Notes under the pieces: model-generated | The model's database searches: none | Told to the model about the DNA's origin: nothing | Seen by the model: the letters and a program-made list of their open reading frames with translations, nothing else | Shown: in pieces, positions 663 to 64,000 of the stretch | Layout: the number at the start of each line of letters is the position of its first letter | Position numbering within the stretch: the first letter of the stretch is position 1 | NCBI RefSeq assembly: GCF_030463535.1 | Contig: NC_132899.1 | Location: 12,610,990-12,674,989, forward strand | DNA: 64,000 nt | Source: Salminus brasiliensis | Taxonomy: Eukaryota; Chordata; Actinopteri; Characiformes; Bryconidae | Direction of reading: 5' to 3' | Position numbers and translations under genes: made by a program

Positions 663-19686
<19,024 letters not shown>

Positions 19687-48960: not shown

Positions 48961-50685
48961 GGTGGTGAAGTTAAAGGGGAATTTCACTAATGTTTCAAGT
49001 TGTGTGTGTAATTTAATGGTTGAGATGTAAAGTCAATCAGCTGTGAAATAGACCACTGTAGAGAAAAGAAAAGACCCCCAGACTAATTCTGGACTGTGGT
49101 GTTGATAGGGACCAGGATTTCTGATGCCTATAATGCAAAACTTAACCATTTTCTCTTTCGACACTAAATATAATCACTTTTTTTTTAATGACTTTTATTT
49201 AATACGTGAAATAACCTAAGCGATGACGATGCCAATGATATGCTTAGAAAAGTAAATTGTAATATATTGTGATGACCGTCACAATGAAGAGTGTCCCACT
49301 GTCCTGCCATTAACCAGCCCTGTTATTGTGCTGATGTGTTCTTTCTTTTGGGACTATTTTGCCTTACAACTGCACATACCTCTCCTTCAAGTATGAATTA
49401 GAAATGTTTTAATATGACAAACGCTGTATGCCTTTTTTATGAAAAGGTTTTTCAGACATCAGGAATCCTGTTCATAATAATTATATATAATACCTTTTAG
49501 TAAAGGAGCTTTCAGAAGCCTACAACTCTACAACCCTACAACTTCAGTTTCTCTAGAACAAGACATTTCACATAAAATCACTCTGAATGACTTTCTTTAC
49601 ATCATAACCATCTAATCTTGTTCTTTCCCATTGGCCAGCTATTCACTGAGTTAATGGTAAGGATTCATTACACCACATATCGCTGCTGTCCAATGACCAT
49701 GTAGCTCCATTTTTGTTAGTTTATTGTTCCGTGGTTTGAACCCTGTAGCTGCTTCTGTACACTGTGTCAACAATTCTGTATGGACAGACCAATAGAAATG
49801 CTTTAAATGAATTGGAATAAACTCTTATTTTACATTTCTGCCTTCTCCTGTAAATTCACCATTTTGGAGATGCAGGTTTTTCATTGGCCAGCGACGATAA
49901 ACACTGCATACTTATGTATTAACGCTTTTACATGTTCTTGCTGCTTAAGGGAGGGAGATCAGTTTAAGAGTGAAGATGAACGGTGGTGTTTCTAGGTCTT
50001 CTGTGATTCTCAGCTACAGTCCTACAGCCCTCCTCTCACAGTGAGAACCATTTTTGCATGGTGTGAGTCTTTAAGTGCTTAAAGTGTGTGAGAGCGCCAT
50101 AACTCCCATATCATTATGCTATGGGGAGTAGGACAGCAAAGCCCATTAAAGCACTTTGCTGTGTGCTTGTCATTTTAAGTAGCTAATCATGTATCACAAA
50201 GTCTCTTGTTTAGTGAATGTTCTATGTGTGTGCTTTAAGAGAAGGCTGATGTTTGAGCTTGTGCAGTATTAAGGTATGAGCCCATGTGATTTCCCAAAGA
50301 ACTTGATCCGCATGAATTGAAGCCTAAGCCAAAAACAACCAAGCTGTTGTTTGTGCTATGGTTGTTTTTCTAATGTTAAACAATGTTGTTTTACATTTCT
50401 TTCACTCTTGGCTCAAAATAAAAGATAATTGTCTCTTGCAACATTTTTTCACCCTTGACTCCAATTAAAATGGACCACTGCCATTTAGGCTTAAAGAAAA
50501 TTCAGTCGAAATGGCAGTTATCAAACAAGCAAAAAGATTTTTATACATTCATTTTTGCTGCATGGCACAGTTTAGCAGGCCAGTGCACAGACCGAAAAGA
50601 ATGGTTCACTGTGGACAGACTAGTAACACTGTCTGCAATCCTCCCTTTTTCCAGGTGGGGTCAAGCCCTTGGCTCAGCACAGCTG

Positions 50686-53600
50686 ATGGCAGCAGTACGG
50701 GATGGTCCGTGGAAGGGCCTAAGCTCTGGAAAGAAGGTGGCCCTGGCTGCAGGCCTTTCTGTGGGAGCTACAGTGGGCTACATGGTTTACCGCCACATTA
50801 GGAGCTGCAGTGGTGAGAAACCTTTACAGCACACAGTAACCTATGTGAGACTATGCGAGAGTCTATATCTGACAAAGTGTTCAACACGAAGGACATGTCT
50901 TTAAGAAAAAGTATTGAGAAAAAGGTACATGAAGATGAGACAGAGAGCCTGTGGTAAGGATTTCCATAGTTTGGGCCATGAGACTGGAAGATCTGCCCCC
51001 TGCAGAAATGAGACTGAACTTAGGCTTAGAGAAGCCCAGCAGCAGAAGACCTACAATATGTACAAATGTTTGTGGGCACCTCTTCTAATAAATGCATTTA
51101 GCTATTTAGCTCATTTGCACCCATTGTATAGTTATTCAAATGCACACACACACAGCTTCTCTAGTCCCTGTAGAGACATACCTCCAATAGAATAGGACTC
51201 TCTGGAACAGTTAAACATGAACCTATTGGCACCATGCCTAATTGATGAGATCAGTTGGGGAGTTGAGGTGGAGTGGTGTACATCCAACATCCTGAACTCA
51301 CTTAAGCTCTAAATGCTGAATGTAATCAAATCCCCACAGCAATGGTAGTAGAAAGTCTTTGCTGAACAGTATATACAATATATACACTTTTTTGGATTTT
51401 GAAAGAAACAACGAGTGAGTGTAGTTTAGTTTAGCAGTAAACTAGTCAGACTAGCAGCCTTAGTTGAACTAACATCAAACCTTTTGGGGTCCATGTAAAT
51501 GCAATTATTGTGATTACAGTCTGGTGTGATGTCTACATATTGGCATAGTGGGAGTGACTATACCTCTTTGGACACTATAGCCATCCAGACAGGTTGTTTG
51601 GCTTGAGTTGTAGTAATATTGTGGATAATAACTTCATATTTCTTTTTGAACTCTGTAGCAGAGTGCCAAAAAACAGAGGAGTCCAGGCTTTCTGTGCCCC
51701 TTGATGTGTACAGATCTATTGCAAGGCACCAGAGCACCTTTCTGGATCTGGTGAGTGTCCATTTTCCTTTATTCTGGTCACTCTGCCTGCTTTTCATCCA
51801 ATTAGCTAGTCATCCTTACCAGATTAATGTTGTTTGTGGAGGGCCACGGATCTGCGGAGATTAGCATTTGCCCTCTTCTAACTTTGAATGCAGCTCATAA
51901 GGGCCTTGCTAATAAGCTAATGAGTTAAAGCAGGTGTGTCTAATGAGGTGGGAGTGAAACGCTGCGATTCTGTGGTCCCCCCTAGGACAATGGTTCCAAA
52001 GTCTGATCCTGGAGGACCCCCTGTCCTACACACCTCTTTTAGTGGTTTTCTATGTAACATGTTTTAGGAAGCGCTTGTTAATTAGCTAATTATCTGAATT
52101 AGGAGTGTTCAGAGGAGAGTAAACACTAAAATGTTCAGGGCAGGGGGTCCTCCAGGAGAAAGGTTGAGAAACATTGCTCTAGGACGTGTGTGACGTGTGT
52201 TTAATTGGTTACAGTACTCTTTTTGTGTAGGTGAATCAGAAGTCTGGGGCTCAGGTGAATGTGCTGCCGGATGGGGAGGAGCCGAGCTCCGTCTGCTTTC
52301 TGCTTCAGGGCACGGCTGAGCAGATTCTCTTGGCGAAGTGTGCTCTGGATAAACTTGCCACTGACTGTGAGGTTATCAGTGACGTGATTGAGGTGCCGCA
52401 GACGGCATTTGGGAGAATAATCGGTATCCCACTGGCTTCTGACTTATATCCGCATGCATTTTTTTTCTCAAGAATTACAGTGACCAGCCTGCAATTATCC
52501 ATTCCATTATTTCTAAAATTATTCTTTCCTTCGATGCAACAGGCCGTGGGGGTGAGACGCTGAAGTTAATTAGCCGGACGTCAGGCGCTCGGGTGAATTG
52601 TCCACGGGACCGTGGCAACAGAATGGAAGAGAAGGGCAAGGTCACAATTATGGGAACACGCCAAGAAGTACGCCGTGCTACAGTAAGTTGCTTTTGTCTA
52701 TTACAGTATGTCACTGCATAAATGTACATTATACTAGGGATGCACCGATCCGATATTAGGTTTGGGTATGAGACGAGTAGTAATGATTTGGCCATTCAGT
52801 TTACTGTCATCTACATTAGCTTTGAAGCTCCAGTGCAAGGCTAAAATAGAGAACTACAGACAACAAATGTGCCTGGTCTCGCCCTTAAGTGTATTTGTAA
52901 TTAAGTAAATCAGGTAGTCTGAATGATTGGCCCTGTTCTGGTTCACTTAGGAATTAATCATGGAGAAGGTGCTGGAGAATGAGACTGTACGGAAGCGGAT
53001 AAGTCAGTCCTCAGCTCTACGGCAGAAAAGGAAAACCCCAGAACTGGAGCTCATCCACAAAGTTCAGGGCCCAGACACAGACCTTACTCAGAACATCAAC
53101 GGCGAGGACCTGCTGTCCCCAGTGACTGACACAAGACTTCTTCATACCAGTGTCTCTAATGGGTTTGCCAGCAGTTGTGACCAAACAGCTGAAAATTCCC
53201 TTAAATCAGATGATGATGAGATTCTGTCCCCAGCTTCACCATTAGAGGTCTCAAAATTTGAAAGTAAGTTCAAATTGTCATGTAAATGATCTTCTTTATA
53301 ACTTCTATAATGATGGGACAATCTATCAAATCACCAAAAGAATTTTGGTCATTAAGAGTGGTAACACTCCGTTAAGTAATATGATAAAGAATTTAGCTTT
53401 CTCTTGCTAGTTCCCAGTCCAGACCTGAGCTTCCAACCTGGCGAGCATTTGGAAGTGTATGTGTCTGCATCAGAGAATCCCCAGCACTTTTGGATCCAGA
53501 TTGTAGGAGTTCGATCACTTCAGCTGGACAAACTGACAACTGAGATGAGTCGTTTCTACAATGGAGACACTTTACATGTGAGTTGAATTTATTTCTTTTT

Positions 53601-56600
53601 TTTAATGTTTGAGGGTATAGATCACCCTCTTGCTTAACAGGGAGAACACAGGTCATTAAGAAACTGTGTGCAGGAACACAGAGTGGAGGCCATAGTTGTG
53701 GGGGACATTGTGGCTGCTCCTTATCGGGACCATGGCACGTGGAACCGGGCGCGAGTGCTGGGGATTCTGGGCTCTGGTCTGGTTGACCTGTACTTTGTGG
53801 ACTTTGGGGACAATGGAGAGCTGCCACGAGATCAGCTGTGCAGCATGAGGTCAGAGAGTGAAGTTGGACCACCTAAATTACTGTACTGTTTTTACTCTGT
53901 TGTACTGAGACCCCAATGAGAGATTTTACTGTACTCTTTCAGGAGTGATTTCTTGAGCTTGCCCTTCCAAGCTATTGAGTGTAGTCTGGCTGGGGTGAAT
54001 CCTGTAGGTGAGCACTTGTATTTTAATGTTTGTGAAAGCAATATTGTATTAATTAAGCTAAATTAGTATTCTGATAAATATTCTGATTATTCTAAACCTT
54101 TGCTGCAGGAGAGGTGTGGACAGAAGAGGCTCTGGATGACTTTGATCGAGTGACATACTGTGCAGAGTGGAAGCCTTTACTGGCCAAACTGTGCAGTTAC
54201 TCTCACTCAGAGATGTCCTCCTGGCCCAGTGTGAAGCTGTATGATAACCGGCAGGGAAAGGTCAGAACACTTTGCTTTTTATAGCTCTGATGCTTTAAAG
54301 GTGCATTAGTCTACCTCTCTTTCCCTCCCATGGACTCAAAGCACAACTCTAAAATAGCTTATTTATTTATATTATACATTTTCAAACACATTTGGCTTGT
54401 AATGTTAAACTGCTGTGAGTACAGTTGAATGTATTTACTGTAATGCGCTCCCTTAAGTTTATCTGTCGCTTCCTGTGTCAGCCGTTGGCATCGTTAACTG
54501 CAGCTGACCGGTATTACTATTTCTCCGGCACTGTGGGAAGATTACTGGATTCTGCCATTTTTTTTCTACCCAAACAGATAGAGATGGGGGGCCCAATTAA
54601 TGGGGTGAAAGGTGGTCAGTATAAGCACAGATGTAGCTCTGGTTCTGAGAGCAGTTTTTCAGACCGGCTTTCTCAGGCGCCTTAAACACATGTGCCTTTG
54701 CTAAAGGGAGGCAAAATTAACTAATGCACCTTGACACTCTTGCTGATGTGAAATCTGTTTTTTTGTGTCTTGTTTTGTGTGTGTTAGATTGTAGACCTGG
54801 GTGAAGAGTTGATCAGCTTGGGCCATGCAGTGAGCTGTCAAGACGAGGGCAGTGGGCTGACAGGAGATGGAGATGAGCCCAGATCTCTGCAGAAGATGTT
54901 GGTAAGAGAGCAATTTTGTCCATGCTCACAACATCACTGTGCTTCTCTAGATTTATTAAACATACTTTTGTGTTTCCAAATTGTTCTACTGATATTTCAG
55001 ATACATGGAGTTATATTACAGAATGTCTGATGTTTGACCTGTTCAAATGAGATGAGGTGCGAGGTGTTTAATATGAATTGCGCATTGTGACTGCACCAAA
55101 AATGGACTCTGACAAGGACAGAACTTCCCAATTAGTTGTAGATTTTCTTATTCTAACCATCTGCCCAGCTAGTTGTGTTTAGTAAATGCAGTGTTTCTGT
55201 CATTAGCTAGGTGCATTTTCACAGCTATAGTTTTTCTCTGGTTTGAATCAGTAAATGAGTTTGTAAACTTATGGTATTTTTCGCACAGAAGCTTATAGAA
55301 CAAATTGCCGGGAGCTGTTATTACTGTACCTTCCCATGTCAAAGCAATCCTCTCTTAAGTAGTGTGCCTTTTTTAAGAGTGGAACTAACAGCATCTATTG
55401 TTGGATGTTTACAGGATGACATGACCGGGGCAACATCAGAGTTAAGTCTTTCCTGCATCAGCTTGTCAGGTAGGTTCAAGAAGGTGACTTCAGGACTGTA
55501 AAATATGAAGATGCATACATGCTACCTTGTCCCCTTTCTATGAAATTCTGCATTTTGAACGATGTTATGGTTATGTATGAATTGTGTAGATTTGTTGAGT
55601 TTTTAATTTTGGGAAGTTGGGGGGGGGGGGGGATTTGCTGATTACAGTACTTTTTTTGGTAATCATTATGAATGAGTTAACAACCATTTAGATGACCTGT
55701 GTTAAGGTTCTACACATACGTGGTCGAGACGGCTCCTGACATGGTCTTCTGCGACCTGTCCGAGCATTGTGGAAGTTGAGCGGGCCGATGTGGACCAGAT
55801 TCCTTCAGACCGATTCATGCCATCTTCCTCCTCCCTCATCCACTCCACACCATCTCAGTGCTTGAGTGACCTGGTCAGCCAGGTCATAGACTTGTCCAGC
55901 TCAGTGCTGAGTCCACTGGACCCTGATCCACCAGTCAGTGTCTGTGAGAATCCATTAAGCTACTCCGAAATCTCCTCATCCTCAACTTCCTTTTCATCCC
56001 CTGTAAATGTGGTGACGGCAGCACTAGGTTCTGTCAGCCTCATTGATGATGTGTTCCTTGGGACATGTGACAATGTAACAGCTTCTTCTTCCGAGGCAAT
56101 GGGCCTGGAGTCTTCACAGAGTACTTGCAATGAAAGTGTGCATAACAGCACCAACAGCGGCAGCAACACTAGTGATGGAATAAGAGGTGTGTGGTACTAC
56201 CTCACCTCCTCCACGGATTCCTCTGAGACCTCATTTAACACTACCATGCCTGCGTCGTCCATCACTTCTTCATCCTCCTATCCATCATTCTCAACCTCCT
56301 CTGTTACCGACTCTGAGGACACAACCTCTGTGACCTCCCCCTCCATAATCTGTCTGAGCTCTGACTTTTCAGAGAGTGCTGATGATGAAATGATGGCAGA
56401 AGATGCACCAGAAAAAACTAAGCCTGTCCAGACACACCAAAAGCAATATGGTGACAGTGTTGTCTGTTTGTCTGACTCCAGTGATTGTAATACTGGGAGT
56501 GACCTTATGTTTGTTGGTTCTTACAAGTCAGCATCTGACCCTTTTGCTAAGGGAACCAGTGATTCCCAGGCAGTTGATGAAAATGAATTGGGCCATGCTG

Positions 56601-57205
56601 AAAACATAAGGGAAGGGAAGACTGAGCTTGGTGAACAAGCTGTAGTGCAAGAGGGGAGGACGGAACCTGAAAGCAAGATGGACGAAAGGGGAGATGTACC
56701 AATAAGAGGTGCTGAATTAATGGTGATACTGCTGTTCACTGGAGCACTGGGGGAGTAAATGATTTTCATGGAAATTGACTTTGTGTGTCTGGGAGAGGTG
56801 GTTAAGTTGAGGTGTTTCTCACAAGAGCATGACAAAACTTTGAGAACTCTCAGATTTCACGTTCACAATATGGAAGTTTAACAAAGTGTATATAAGGCCT
56901 ATATAGAATGTCACAAATATATTGTCAGTTGATTATTTGATATGTTATGTATATTAAAGATTGCACAACACAGGGGATGCATGAGGGTGTATAACATTCA
57001 CTGGAAGATGCTGCTTGTGTGTGTATGTGTGTTATGAAATGTGGTCCTTTTTGACATCCCTTCACCATAATGTTTTTCAAAGGGTGACTAAGTGAGTAAG
57101 CACGATCTGTTGAACTGTTATTGATTTGCTTTTTCTTCATCTTTTGTAGAAGTTGCTTCAATATCTGGAAGTGTGGACGATGTTCTTGAAGAAGAATTTA
57201 ACTGA
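50686..57205 (+). CDS. tdrkh: Tudor and KH domain-containing protein (piRNA pathway)
   Basis: TDRKH (PAPI) is anchored in the outer mitochondrial membrane, where its Tudor domain binds methylarginine on PIWI proteins and supports piRNA 3' trimming in the germ line. Coding exons: 50686-50812, 51659-51750, 52231-52423, 52543-52682, 52951-53263, 53411-53577, 53674-53849, 53943-54007, 54109-54260, 54788-54901, 55415-55469 and 57150-57205; 549 aa against about 561 in human. Residues 18-35 (VALAAGLSVGATVGYMVY) form the membrane anchor. KH2 has an intact GRGG loop; KH1 does not. The extended Tudor domain spans about 290-475 with DLYFVDFGDNGEL. Exon 1 coding starts at ATG 50686, where the anchor follows directly. 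All phases agree. Confidence 0.93.
51055..51430 (+). mobile_element. MITE of the GATGAGGTGGGGTGGT family (sense copy)
   Basis: The left end GTACAAATGTTTGTGGGCACC TTC is the reverse complement of the right end at about 57790-57830, and the core has CATCCAACATCCTGAACTCA and CAAATCCCCACAGCAATGGTAGTAGAAAG. It lies in intron 50813-51658. Confidence 0.6.
51832..51984. mobile_element. Small MITE with GGAGGGCCACGGATC ends
   Basis: The left end TGGAGGGCCACGGATCTGCGG and the reverse complement of the right end (GGGGGGACCACAGAATCGCAG) form an inverted repeat about 150 bp apart. It directly abuts the next element. Confidence 0.45.
51988..52178. mobile_element. hAT-type MITE with TCCTGGAGGACCCCC ends
   Basis: The left CTGATCCTGGAGGACCCCCTGTCC and the right, reverse complement TTTCTCCTGGAGGACCCCCTGCCC, form a strong inverted repeat. 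The flanks CCTAGGAC (51981-51988) and TCTAGGAC (52178-52185) agree at 7 of 8 bases, the duplication length of hAT elements. It lies in the intron before KH exon 52231. Confidence 0.65.
53411..54901 (+). other. tdrkh: tdrkh extended Tudor domain
   Basis: Exons 53411-53577, 53674-53849, 53943-54007, 54109-54260 and 54788-54901. The N-terminal SN-like strand is LEVYVSASENPQHFWIQIVG. The Tudor barrel is VVGDIVAAPYRDHGTWNRARVLG to VDLYFVDFGDNGEL, with aromatic residues placed for methylarginine binding. The C-terminal half starts DFLSLPFQAIECSLAGV and ends VDLGEELISLGHAV. Confidence 0.9.
55619..55632 (+). repeat. G14 run in the last coding intron of tdrkh
   Basis: Fourteen consecutive G residues about 180 bases before the candidate cassette acceptor at 55808. 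Confidence 0.95.
55809..56708 (+). other. tdrkh: Possible cassette or alternative last exon of tdrkh, Ser-rich with SUMO-interacting-like motifs
   Basis: An ORF runs open from 55706 to the stop TAA at 56756-56758 inside the last coding intron. The acceptor TTCCTTCAG/ACC at 55808 enters it in the phase left by exon 55415-55469 (G/AC), and a weak donor AAGAG/GTGCTG at 56708 leaves it in the phase of exon 57150 (G/AA), so the 900-base segment would add 300 residues without shifting frame. Without that donor it could be a terminal exon, with ATTAAA at 56953-56958. It is Ser/Thr/Asp-rich and contains VIDLSSS (55883), IICLSSD (56345) and VVCLSDSSD (56459). Human TDRKH has no such segment that I know of. 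Expression is unproven. Confidence 0.5.
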
Positions 57206-57360
57206 CGAAAGACCAAAGACAAATATGCCTTCGTTTTAGGTAAGCAAATGTCTTGGTCTTGTATCATGTGTAATCAGTTATTTAAAGTCTGATATCCATC
57301 CGTTTTTGGAATTTCTTTATATTAGCTTTTACAAACGTTACTTACAAAAAAACAACAATG

Positions 57361-57830
57361 TAGACAAAAGTATTGGGACACCTGCTCTTTATAATCTATA
57401 TTTAGTTCATATAATTATAGATTATAAACTATAATCTAATTGTAGTTTATAATCTATAATTTGTTTATTCTGTAACTGTCTCTCCTGTCCAAGGAAGGCT
57501 TTCTACTAGATTCTGGAGCATTGCTGTAAGGATTTGATTGTATTTAGGCACAAGAGCATTTATGAGGTCAGGATGTTGTATGATCACCACTATGCCTCTT
57601 CCACAACTTATCCTAAAAGTGTTGTATGGAGTACAATCATTCCAGAGAACACCGTTCTACTGCTCCACATCTCTGTAGATGTAGCTGTAGTACAGAAGTA
57701 GATGTAGACTGTAGCTGCATGTGTGCATTTCCACATCTGTGTCGGCAATGGTTGCAACTTAAAGTAGCTGAATGCATTTATAAGAAGGGGTGTCTGCAAA
57801 CATTTGGATATATAGTGAACCTCATTCAGA
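57361..57830 (-). mobile_element. MITE of the GATGAGGTGGGGTGGT family (antisense, full length)
   Basis: The left end AGACAAAAGTATTGGGACACCTGCTC and right end CATTTGGATATATAGTGAACC bound the longest copy in the window, about 470 bp. Its reverse complement carries the shared core (TGATCATACAACATCCTGACCTCA). It includes a short internal ATAGATTATA repeat. Confidence 0.6.
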
Positions 57831-58387
57831 GACCAAGTTATGATATGCACCCCACTGCACCCCACATCACACAAATGCATTCATCAGAGTATTCGCAAAA
57901 GTCATGTATCACTTTTTGTGTTGTTTTTGAGCTCAGCTGGAAAGCCCCTGTGCAAGTGTGACTTATTTTGTTTTACTTTTGTCCTTTTCCCCCAGAGACC
58001 ACCATGCTGACGTGAAGTTGCTTCATGCTTCCCTCGCTGTAACTGGGAGCTTTACTGACTGTGCTATATGTTTATTTGGGTTTTTTTTTTCTCTGTTTAT
58101 CTCCAATATTTCAACATTTAGTTGTCGACAAAAGTTTATTCTTTGCTTTGCATCAAGCTGCTTGAGAACAGTTAACTGATGTCCAGTTGAGGAACAGTGC
58201 TCAGGGAATTTGGAATGTGTGAGCGACAGCAAGAAACCTCAGTATTTCCATAGTTTTGCACTTTTTTGTGAGTTAAAACATTCTGTTGTTCGGTACTGTC
58301 TGTACTTTTACTGTAATATTGTTATTATGTGTAATATGTAATATATGTTGTGCCTATTGAGGTTTATGTGCTCTCAAATATATTGCA

Positions 58388-58403
58388 AATAAAATTAAAT
58401 AAA
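58388..58403 (+). other. Polyadenylation signals for tdrkh (two AATAAA)
   Basis: Overlapping-range AATAAA hexamers at 58388 and 58398 follow the predicted terminal exon. Confidence 0.7.
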
Positions 58404-58471
58404 GATTGCTATTCTATTCAATATGTTTCATTGTTAGGTTTTCTTTCATACATTTTTCTCCTTCTTTTTCA

Positions 58472-58906
58472 GACTACAGTCATGTAAAAAAGTTAGGATA
58501 TGCCATTAAAACATTGGCATTTTATAAACATATTTAAACTTGAACATTTGATCTTCATTTGGAGAATCTTGTGAGATGGTAATAGAACAACCAAAAACCT
58601 ATATAAACCAATAAAACTGAAGAAATGTTTAAAAGTCATTTGTAAAGTTCCTATAATCTACCAATCTCTGATGGGAGAGAGTTTTTCCCACTCCTCCATG
58701 CATCAATCTGTATCTACAACCTCCTTTCTGAAGGCCTCTCTTTGGGTCTCACCAGAGATACTTGCTTCAACAACCAAGAGCAATACAAACTAAATGTCTG
58801 GGGTTTCAATAAAGTCGGATGTGGCGCGCCTGATTCTAATTTTAAGCATTTTGAAGAAGTAATAAATGTGGGGGTGTCCTAACTTTTATTTATACATCAT
58901 TGGGTG
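58472..58906. mobile_element. MITE with CATGTAAAAAAGTTAGGA ends
   Basis: The left end TACAGTCATGTAAAAAAGTTAGGATATG and the reverse complement of the right end (ATGATGTATAAATAAAAGTTAGGACACC) match with a small indel. This mariner-like MITE lies between tdrkh and mbtd1. The remainder of 58907-59750 is AT-rich with a (TA) run at about 59281-59313 and nothing else recognised. Confidence 0.5.
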
Positions 58907-59749
58907 CTTGTGATTGTAGCTTCTTACACAGATTGTCATTGTTTTTATTATTGTTATTACTATTATCTTCACATATGGGCAGTAAGTAGTTAGTTTTGAA
59001 TGCCAGGTGCCATTGTTATATTTTACTTGGGTTATTTTGGGAATCATTAATTAATCAATAATAAGCTAATAAAAGTTTTATTTGGATATGGGTTTAGTGT
59101 ACCCCACCCAACTGTGGTCATATTTATTACTGCATTAAAAATGTCCATATGGCTGGGATGTAAACTTGCCAAACCCTGAAAGCGACATGGATGTTGACCC
59201 TTTATTTAATACATATTTGATATATATTTATGAGACCTTTGCAACATCAGTGTGGTAATTAAATCGAATTATTATTATTGTAATATATATATATATATAT
59301 AATATATATATAACATTTATTTATCCTTCTGAAGAATTATTTGAAAAGTATAAAGTTGCATGTATTATTATTAGAATTTTATACATCCAGAATTTATTGT
59401 TCATAGCAGGGTTTTTAAATAAATAAAAAACACATAGAAGACAAAAAATTGGCTAAAGTTTCCTTTACAATTCCTTTACAAAGTAATTTAAACTTTAAAA
59501 TCTGTATGTATTTTTCTGGTGCATGCAGCGCACAAATAATCCACTAGGGAGCAGAAAACATGTATCTTAATTTATTAATAATGATTTATTTAATGCATTA
59601 TTGTAGTCATTATTTATACATCGTTTGATAATTATTATAAAAAATAATACTTATTTAATTGAATTGAATTTCACTGGTGTTAAATATGTATCAAAAATGG
59701 TGCACTTGGCTTTAAAGGGTAAAGGGGTTTTCTGGCAATTATTTGCTGG

Positions 59750-60065
59750 TTGAGGTTTTGAAGGGTTGAGCCGAGTCGAGGCTCCTCTGCTCAGATCGGC
59801 TGCTCTCGGCTCTAACTTACTCGCCCTATTTTTGTGTTATCCGATGATGACGACATCGCTTCCGCACCTATAGTAAACAGGCACGGAAGCGCATGCGCAC
59901 TTGTTCAATAACAATTGTTGCTAATCAGCTGGAGTTATATATTTTATTTTATTTTTATTTTCTTTGTGCTTTCCGTAAATATCCCACACAGAAGCCCTAC
60001 ATTCTGGGGCATTGGAATACAACGTAACCAACTAGCGTAAGGTGACGATCTTACATGAAGGGCTA
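59750..60065 (+). promoter_or_regulatory. mbtd1: mbtd1 promoter and 5' UTR
   Basis: A CpG-rich block with a perfect NRF1 site, GCGCATGCGC (59889-59898), an adjacent ETS-like CGGAAG (59885) and an inverse CTTCCG near 59859. NRF1 plus ETS sites mark TATA-less housekeeping promoters. Transcription probably starts between 59870 and 60000. Confidence 0.65.
59889..59898. promoter_or_regulatory. NRF1 binding site GCGCATGCGC
   Basis: An exact palindromic NRF1 consensus, about 170 bases upstream of the mbtd1 start codon. Confidence 0.75.

Positions 60066-64000
<3,935 letters not shown>

What the first reader, a model, noticed from the sequence alone, without database searches (positions are those of the whole stretch)
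55809..56708. Phase-compatible Ser-rich ORF with three SUMO-interacting-like motifs inside the last coding intron of tdrkh
Seen: an ORF of nearly 1 kb with strongly biased composition lies between tdrkh exons 55415-55469 and 57150-57205. A 900-base segment from acceptor 55808 to donor 56708 preserves frame on both sides. It contains VIDLSSS, IICLSSD and VVCLSDSSD, each fitting the hydrophobic core plus acidic/Ser pattern of SUMO-interacting motifs. Known: the conserved human-like isoform skips this segment, and SUMO ligases act in nuclear piRNA silencing. Inferred: a fish isoform of Tdrkh could bind SUMO-modified partners, or the segment could be an alternative terminal exon ending at 56758 with ATTAAA at 56953. 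The donor is weak, which leaves the cassette form uncertain.
Basis: partly seen in the sequence, partly recalled or inferred. Interest (0 to 1): 0.72.

Follow-up and report, generated by a model that had tools for sequence, protein, structure and literature searches.

The report
Orphan coding block in tdrkh intron
Inside the last coding intron of a fish germline gene, tdrkh, lies a real-looking, single-copy stretch of protein code that may give the protein an extra serine-rich, possibly SUMO-binding tail, but no transcript or relative was available to prove it.

Summary
The ORF is real: 350 codons open from stop to stop (55706-56755, stop 56756-56758), the longest of the window. None of 2000 random copies of like composition reaches its length. 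The host gene is tdrkh: the exons give 549 aa matching solved TDRKH structures. The downstream step is best at the stop codon on GC, but shallow. Donor 56708 ranks 16 of 119 GTs; a better in-phase donor lies inside the ORF at 56186. The ORF is found at one place only in its 1.07-Gb genome. I found no parent gene, Pfam family, PDB chain or viral relative, and it is not Topors. The three SIM-like cores are there and exceed chance on a pattern chosen after seeing them. One of the three fits the ELM definition. I favour an alternative last exon of tdrkh (0.4), closely followed by a captured or nested coding block not joined to tdrkh (0.37). SUMO binding is a hypothesis. RNA reads and related fish genomes, which I did not have, would decide.

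The parts
50686..57205 (+). tdrkh coding region (exons of my model 50655-50812, 51659-51750, 52231-52423, 52543-52682, 52951-53263, 53411-53577, 53674-53849, 53943-54007, 54109-54260, 54788-54901, 55415-55469, 57150-57239), 549 aa, ATG at 50686, stop TGA at 57203-57205
   Evidence: no second high-identity copy in the genome
55470..57149 (+). last coding intron of tdrkh that holds the block
55706..56758 (+). Ser-rich ORF, 350 codons plus TAA; the coding block
55706..55808 (+). CpG-rich first tenth of the ORF (7 CpG, o/e 0.87 against 0.20 in the rest); 55708-55776 is also open in the +2 frame with GC3 0.70
55707..55707 (+). in-phase acceptor at the composition edge, first exon base (poor score -0.4)
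55817..55819 (+). first in-frame ATG of the ORF (alternative start if it is a nested gene, 313 aa)
55883..55903 (+). SIM-like core VIDLSSS (fits ELM pattern)
56186..56186 (+). strongest donor-like site in the intron, last exon base, in phase, inside the ORF (score 8.6)
56345..56365 (+). SIM-like core IICLSSD (does not fit ELM pattern)
56459..56485 (+). SIM-like core VVCLSDSSD (does not fit ELM pattern)
56953..56958 (+). ATTAAA poly(A) hexamer, followed by a GT-rich stretch about 57010-57035

Best explanation
The block is a lineage-restricted, fast-evolving coding exon used as an alternative last exon of tdrkh. Pre-mRNA would be spliced from the donor at 55469 to an acceptor at 55809 (or 55707). 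It would be read in the ORF frame to the stop at 56756-56758 and cleaved after ATTAAA 56953, instead of splicing on to exon 57150. The product would keep the N-terminal, KH and Tudor parts of Tdrkh. It would exchange the last 18 residues for a Ser/Thr/acidic tail of about 316 (or 350) residues with up to three hydrophobic-core SIM-like motifs. Shown: the coding character of the block, its upstream edge, same strand, compatible phase, one copy found, a poly(A) hexamer behind it. Inferred: lineage restriction, splicing, use of the poly(A) site, expression, disorder, and any SUMO binding.
For: 350-codon ORF not reached in 2000 Markov copies. The codon score of the ORF frame is above zero in 17 of 17 overlapping windows from 55720 to 56799, is 0.7 in 56740-56859 and -14.7 from 56800. 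Composition step at 55710-55719; on GC alone the best downstream step is 56756, the first base of the stop codon. The frame fits exon 55415-55469 from either acceptor. The one AATAAA/ATTAAA on the + strand in 55470-58200 begins 195 bases behind the stop. One copy with no detected parent, so a recent neutral insertion that merely stays open is less likely.
Against: No transcript and no second species was available. The acceptor at the composition edge is poor (-0.4) and the better one (55809) lies about 100 bases inside the block; five AGs inside the ORF score higher than 55809, one of them (56373) in phase. The downstream edge is shallow, and with all four bases the best step is at 56447, inside the ORF. 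55708-55776 also reads FYTYVVETAPDMVFCDLSEHCGS in the +2 frame with GC3 0.70, which could be an older frame before a frameshift. A minus-strand frame outscores the ORF frame in 8 of the 17 windows and another plus frame in 2; that minus frame holds 5 stops over the ORF. A poly(A) hexamer by chance is not unlikely: 50813-55414 holds 2. The conserved tdrkh form (recalled as human-like) skips the block.
Confidence: 0.4

Rival explanations
1. A coding block of other origin sits in the intron and is not joined to tdrkh: a 5'-truncated copy of the 3' part of some gene, or a nested intronless gene starting at ATG 55817.
For: Abrupt 5' edge at 55710-55719; CpG-rich first 103 bases next to 55600-55699 with no CpG; a second open frame at the 5' end that looks coding and would need a frameshift to join the ORF; no good acceptor at the edge.
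Against: No parent sequence found in the genome by one DNA and three protein queries (only the tool's best candidates are scored); no exact flanking repeat above chance between 55600-55740 and 56940-57149; no A-run seen after 56953. An insertion old enough to have lost these marks should also have lost a 350-codon frame, unless selected.
Confidence: 0.37
2. The reader's in-frame cassette exon 55809-56708.
For: Both ends are AG/GT and preserve phase; acceptor 55809 is the best of the first 380 bases of the intron. The downstream composition edge does not exclude 56708.
Against: The upstream step lies about 100 bases before 55809; the ORF stays open and coding-like to 56756; donor 56708 is rank 16 of 119.
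Confidence: 0.07
3. A shorter in-frame cassette 55809-56186 (378 bases), holding only the first SIM-like core.
For: Donor 56186 is the best of 119 GTs in the intron and in phase.
Against: It leaves the open, coding-like 56187-56755 unexplained.
Confidence: 0.07
4. Chance ORF in pyrimidine-rich intron sequence, or a relic no longer expressed.
For: A 21-base unit repeated twice at 56258-56300 shows simple-sequence growth; a minus frame scores well too.
Against: 0 of 2000 Markov copies; apart from the Tc1 transposase frame the next longest frame of the window is 190 codons; the upstream composition edge coincides with the start of the open frame.
Confidence: 0.09

Closest known systems
TDRKH/Tdrd2 (Tudor and KH domain protein of piRNA trimming)
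   Same: Host gene; the 549-aa protein matches PDB TDRKH chains over the extended Tudor part and a KH domain.
   Different: The known proteins have, as far as recalled, no Ser-rich 300-residue tail; 0 papers of the held library have both 'tdrkh' and 'SUMO-interacting motif'.
SIM-bearing proteins such as GCNA, Topors, PML, RNF4
   Same: Hydrophobic four-residue cores followed by Ser/acidic runs in low-complexity sequence; a Topors locus of this genome has DSSVITVSEDE and ELVQLSSDSEDDEEEE.
   Different: No similarity to the two Topors loci of this genome: best 18.5 bits against a mean best of 20.4 for 30 shuffles. PML and RNF4 are named from recall; for GCNA passages of PMC5098910 were seen. GCNA, PML and RNF4 were not compared here.
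Alternative last exons by intronic polyadenylation (recalled class)
   Same: Open frame continuing from the upstream exon, stop, poly(A) hexamer, all inside one intron.
   Different: Here no transcript evidence; acceptors weak.

Membership tests
Tdrkh (host gene) | KH and extended Tudor domains in one protein | tested here: met
   PDB TDRKH chains 6pi7 (residues 300-526) and 1we8, KH (117-205)
Alternative last exon of tdrkh | Frame continuous from the upstream exon to a stop, with a poly(A) hexamer behind it | tested here: met
   the hexamer alone is weak evidence
Alternative last exon of tdrkh | Functional acceptor at the start of the block | tested here: inconclusive
   55707 scores -0.4, 55809 scores 4.0; 12 tdrkh acceptors of my model 1.8 to 12.8
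Alternative last exon of tdrkh | Junction reads | not testable with these tools
   no RNA data
[quoted passage not shown]
SUMO-interacting motif | Binds SUMO | not testable with these tools
   needs a binding assay
Processed retrocopy | Recognisable parent gene | tested here: not met
   no second place found in the genome
Processed retrocopy | Target-site duplication and A-tail | tested here: not met
   longest exact word shared by the flanks 8, reached or passed in 230 of 500 shuffles; no A-run seen after 56953
Topors | Sequence similarity to this genome's Topors loci | tested here: not met
   below the mean of shuffled controls
Transposable element | Repeated in the genome | tested here: not met
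   only 37-59 bases at about 55578-55634, outside the ORF, recur

The most novel reading that the evidence does not exclude
This fish makes a second Tdrkh whose C-terminal tail is a disordered, multi-SIM platform. It would tie the mitochondrial piRNA-trimming scaffold to SUMO-modified nuage proteins.
Probability: 0.2. Interest if true: 0.65.

Novelty: new variant of a known kind. Interest (0 to 1): 0.36.

Why it matters
If spliced into tdrkh, the block would be an isoform that gives a core piRNA-trimming scaffold a long Ser-rich tail. A review of which I saw passages (PMC12497819) reports SUMOylation of nuage proteins in flies and says that the role in male germ cells needs study; a SUMO-reading Tdrkh would make that testable in a fish. 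If it is not spliced in, it is still an orphan coding block kept open inside a germline gene.

Tried and rejected
Topors: suggested by the resemblance of SDLMFVGSYK to a recalled Topors motif. Two Topors loci of the genome were found, and the ORF scores below shuffled copies against them. Rejected.

Weak hits: the second tblastn hit of the ORF (C11, E 0.445, L002) covers query residues 43-102 at 37% with two stops and is taken as chance. DUF7498 (E 0.48 for the ORF, 0.072 for its C-terminal part) is below the Pfam cut-off; the family itself has one weak hit in the genome, on another contig. PI3K_1B_p101 (E 1.6) and the PDB hit 5tv7 (E 1) are taken as chance.

Virus: the viral-contig scan gave two pattern matches, neither confirmed. 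Retrocopy marks: flanking repeats no longer than in shuffles. Joining the +2-frame 5' peptide to the ORF frame for a search found only the block itself. PF26084, recalled for Topors, is not in the library.

One search shows it is shallow on GC and lies elsewhere (56447) with all four bases.

Paper searches (listings only unless said): tdrkh, retrogene and intron, at least two of the three terms, 808 papers, 10 listed; tdrkh with zebrafish, 52, 15 listed; tdrkh with SUMO-interacting motif, 0; topors with teleost, 16, 10 listed; GCNA with SUMO-interacting motif and zebrafish, 3, passages of PMC5098910 seen; tdrkh with sumoylation, 9, 8 listed, passages of PMC12497819 seen; tdrkh with alternative splicing and isoform, 25, 8 listed; tdrd2 with fish and exon, 18, 8 listed. 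Structure prediction was not run: for one Ser-rich sequence without relatives it would say little.
Full report
What is there. The window is G000:C26:12610990-12674989 of a 1.07-Gb genome. No call names the species; the finding calls it a fish. Twelve exons that I joined at AG/GT sites give a 549-aa protein with best PDB matches to TDRKH (6pi7, E 5.2e-74; KH domain 1we8, 1.2e-16). Matches of high identity lie only at this locus; the 12 others of the 22 listed are at 25-39% identity. In its last coding intron (55470-57149) an ORF is open from 55706 to a TAA at 56756-56758.

More than chance. The ORF is the longest frame of the window; the next is a Tc1 transposase frame (348 codons), then 190 codons. 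Of 2000 second-order Markov copies of 55692-56975, none has a 350-codon frame on either strand (mean 110, maximum 273); 60 Markov copies of the whole window reach at most 235. The other two + frames hold 19 and 35 stops, the three minus frames 15, 5 and 18.

Limits. The strongest composition step upstream is at 55710 with all bases and 55719 on GC (GC 0.40 in the 100 bases before 55707, 0.56 after); 55809 gains 2.78 against 9.24 on GC. The downstream side is less clear. On GC the best step is 56756, the first base of the stop codon (4.43), but 56834 has 4.33 and 56709 has 2.55. With all four bases the best step is 56447, inside the ORF, and 56756 (7.95) hardly differs from 56709 (7.15). With tdrkh codon usage against tdrkh introns, the ORF frame scores above zero in 17 of 17 windows of 120 bases from 55720 to 56799, 0.7 in the next and -14.7 from 56800. 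This score does not tell the strands apart. In 8 of the 17 a minus frame scores higher, most of all in 56140-56379, where Ser-rich pyrimidine runs read as Glu on the other strand (my reading); in 2 of 17 another plus frame does. That minus frame holds 5 stops over the ORF. I conclude that the coding unit is the whole ORF: firmly at the upstream end, less so at the downstream end.

Splicing signals. The 12 acceptors of my tdrkh model score 1.8 to 12.8 and the donors 0.6 to 10.7. Acceptor 55809 scores 4.0, the best AG of the first 380 bases of the intron, seventh of 104 over all. Five AGs inside the ORF score higher, one of them (56373, 6.5) in phase. Acceptor 55707, at the composition edge and in phase, scores -0.4. 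Donor 56708 scores 3.6 (16th of 119); donor 56186, in phase and inside the ORF, is first with 8.6. The one AATAAA/ATTAAA on the + strand between 55470 and 58200 is ATTAAA at 56953, with a GT-rich stretch at 57010-57035; 50813-55414 holds 2 such hexamers, so one by chance is not unlikely. 57991-61500 holds 14, the first at 58388. This leans to a terminal exon over a cassette, without proving either.

Origin. By DNA, 55500-57150 recurs only in pieces of 37-59 bases matching about 55578-55634, outside the ORF. The ORF, its N-terminal part and its C-terminal 138 residues find only the block itself, apart from one hit at E 0.445 that I take as chance. The genome tool warns that only the best candidates are scored. 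As a control, a TOPORS stretch found two Topors loci at 75 and 64% identity. Pfam, PDB and viral contigs gave no accepted relative. No exact flanking repeat beyond shuffles. So no parent is visible. A neutral insertion old enough to have lost its parent should not have kept 350 codons open; that is an argument for use, not a measurement of selection.

An awkward detail. The first 103 bases hold 7 CpG (o/e 0.87; rest of the ORF 0.20; tdrkh introns 0.24). Such density is rare but not unique: 40 of 3195 windows of 100 bases have 7 or more, and 56200-56299 has o/e 0.87 with 3 CpG. In the +2 frame 55708-55776 reads FYTYVVETAPDMVFCDLSEHCGS with GC3 0.70 (tdrkh 0.54). That could be an older frame cut by a frameshift, which would favour a captured, partly decayed block, or a small promoter patch of a nested gene starting at ATG 55817. 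This keeps the rival close.

The SIM claim. VIDLSSS, IICLSSD and VVCLSDSSD fit [VI][VI]xL followed by three of S/D/E. Shuffles of the protein have a mean of 0.014 and none of 20000 reaches three, but the pattern was written after seeing the motifs. A looser core with two of D/E/S in the next three gives 3 against 0.58, P 0.019; inverted cores 1 against 0.59. A core followed by at least three of D/E/S/T gives 3 against 0.27, P 0.0016. The ELM pattern, as quoted in PMC5098910 (passages seen), takes 1 of the three, VIDLSSS, and is not significant as a count (4 against 1.67, P 0.07). The last two cores look like copies of one unit (IICLSSDFSES, VVCLSDSSDCN) by eye. Binding is untested.

How it would work, if real. 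Spliced to exon 55415-55469, the tail would replace the last 18 residues (EVASISGSVDDVLEEEFN) of Tdrkh. A Ser/Thr/acidic tail with SIM cores would offer avidity for SUMO-modified partners. A review (PMC12497819, passages seen) reports SUMO on the nuage proteins Spindle-E and Maelstrom in flies, so partners are conceivable in the cytoplasm. Steps shown: coding block, strand, phase, one copy found. Steps inferred: splicing, polyadenylation, expression, binding.

Verdict. A real and odd orphan coding block, delimited too narrowly in the finding. Isoform status is about even with a rival; SUMO function is speculative. Interest is moderate.

Noticed in passing
6967-8612: A complete-looking Tc1/Sleeping Beauty-type transposon: 222-base inverted repeats 98% complementary round an uninterrupted 348-codon stop-to-stop transposase frame 7344-8387. 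It looks young.
   Followed up: partly
57206-57995: tdrkh seems to have an intron in its 3' UTR: strong donor after 57239 (score 9.3) and a pyrimidine-rich AG at about 57995 (by eye).
   Followed up: no
55706-55808: A 103-base CpG-rich patch with a second, coding-looking frame, next to 100 bases without CpG.
   Followed up: partly
55578-55634: 37-59 bases round a G-run recur on the other strand at three places of the genome at 81-95% identity, a repeat fragment just upstream of the block.
   Followed up: no
56447: Strong change of base composition inside the ORF (pyrimidine-rich, Ser-coding before; purine-rich after).
   Followed up: no
L011 and L012: The genome has at least two Topors loci (C4, C14); both carry an MIVGYVKP..RTPELVQLSSDS stretch.
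   Followed up: no
61464-61817: Exon-like frame that by recall resembles the N-terminus of MBTD1, just downstream of tdrkh; no call confirms it (Pfam gave only IMUP below cut-off).
   Followed up: no
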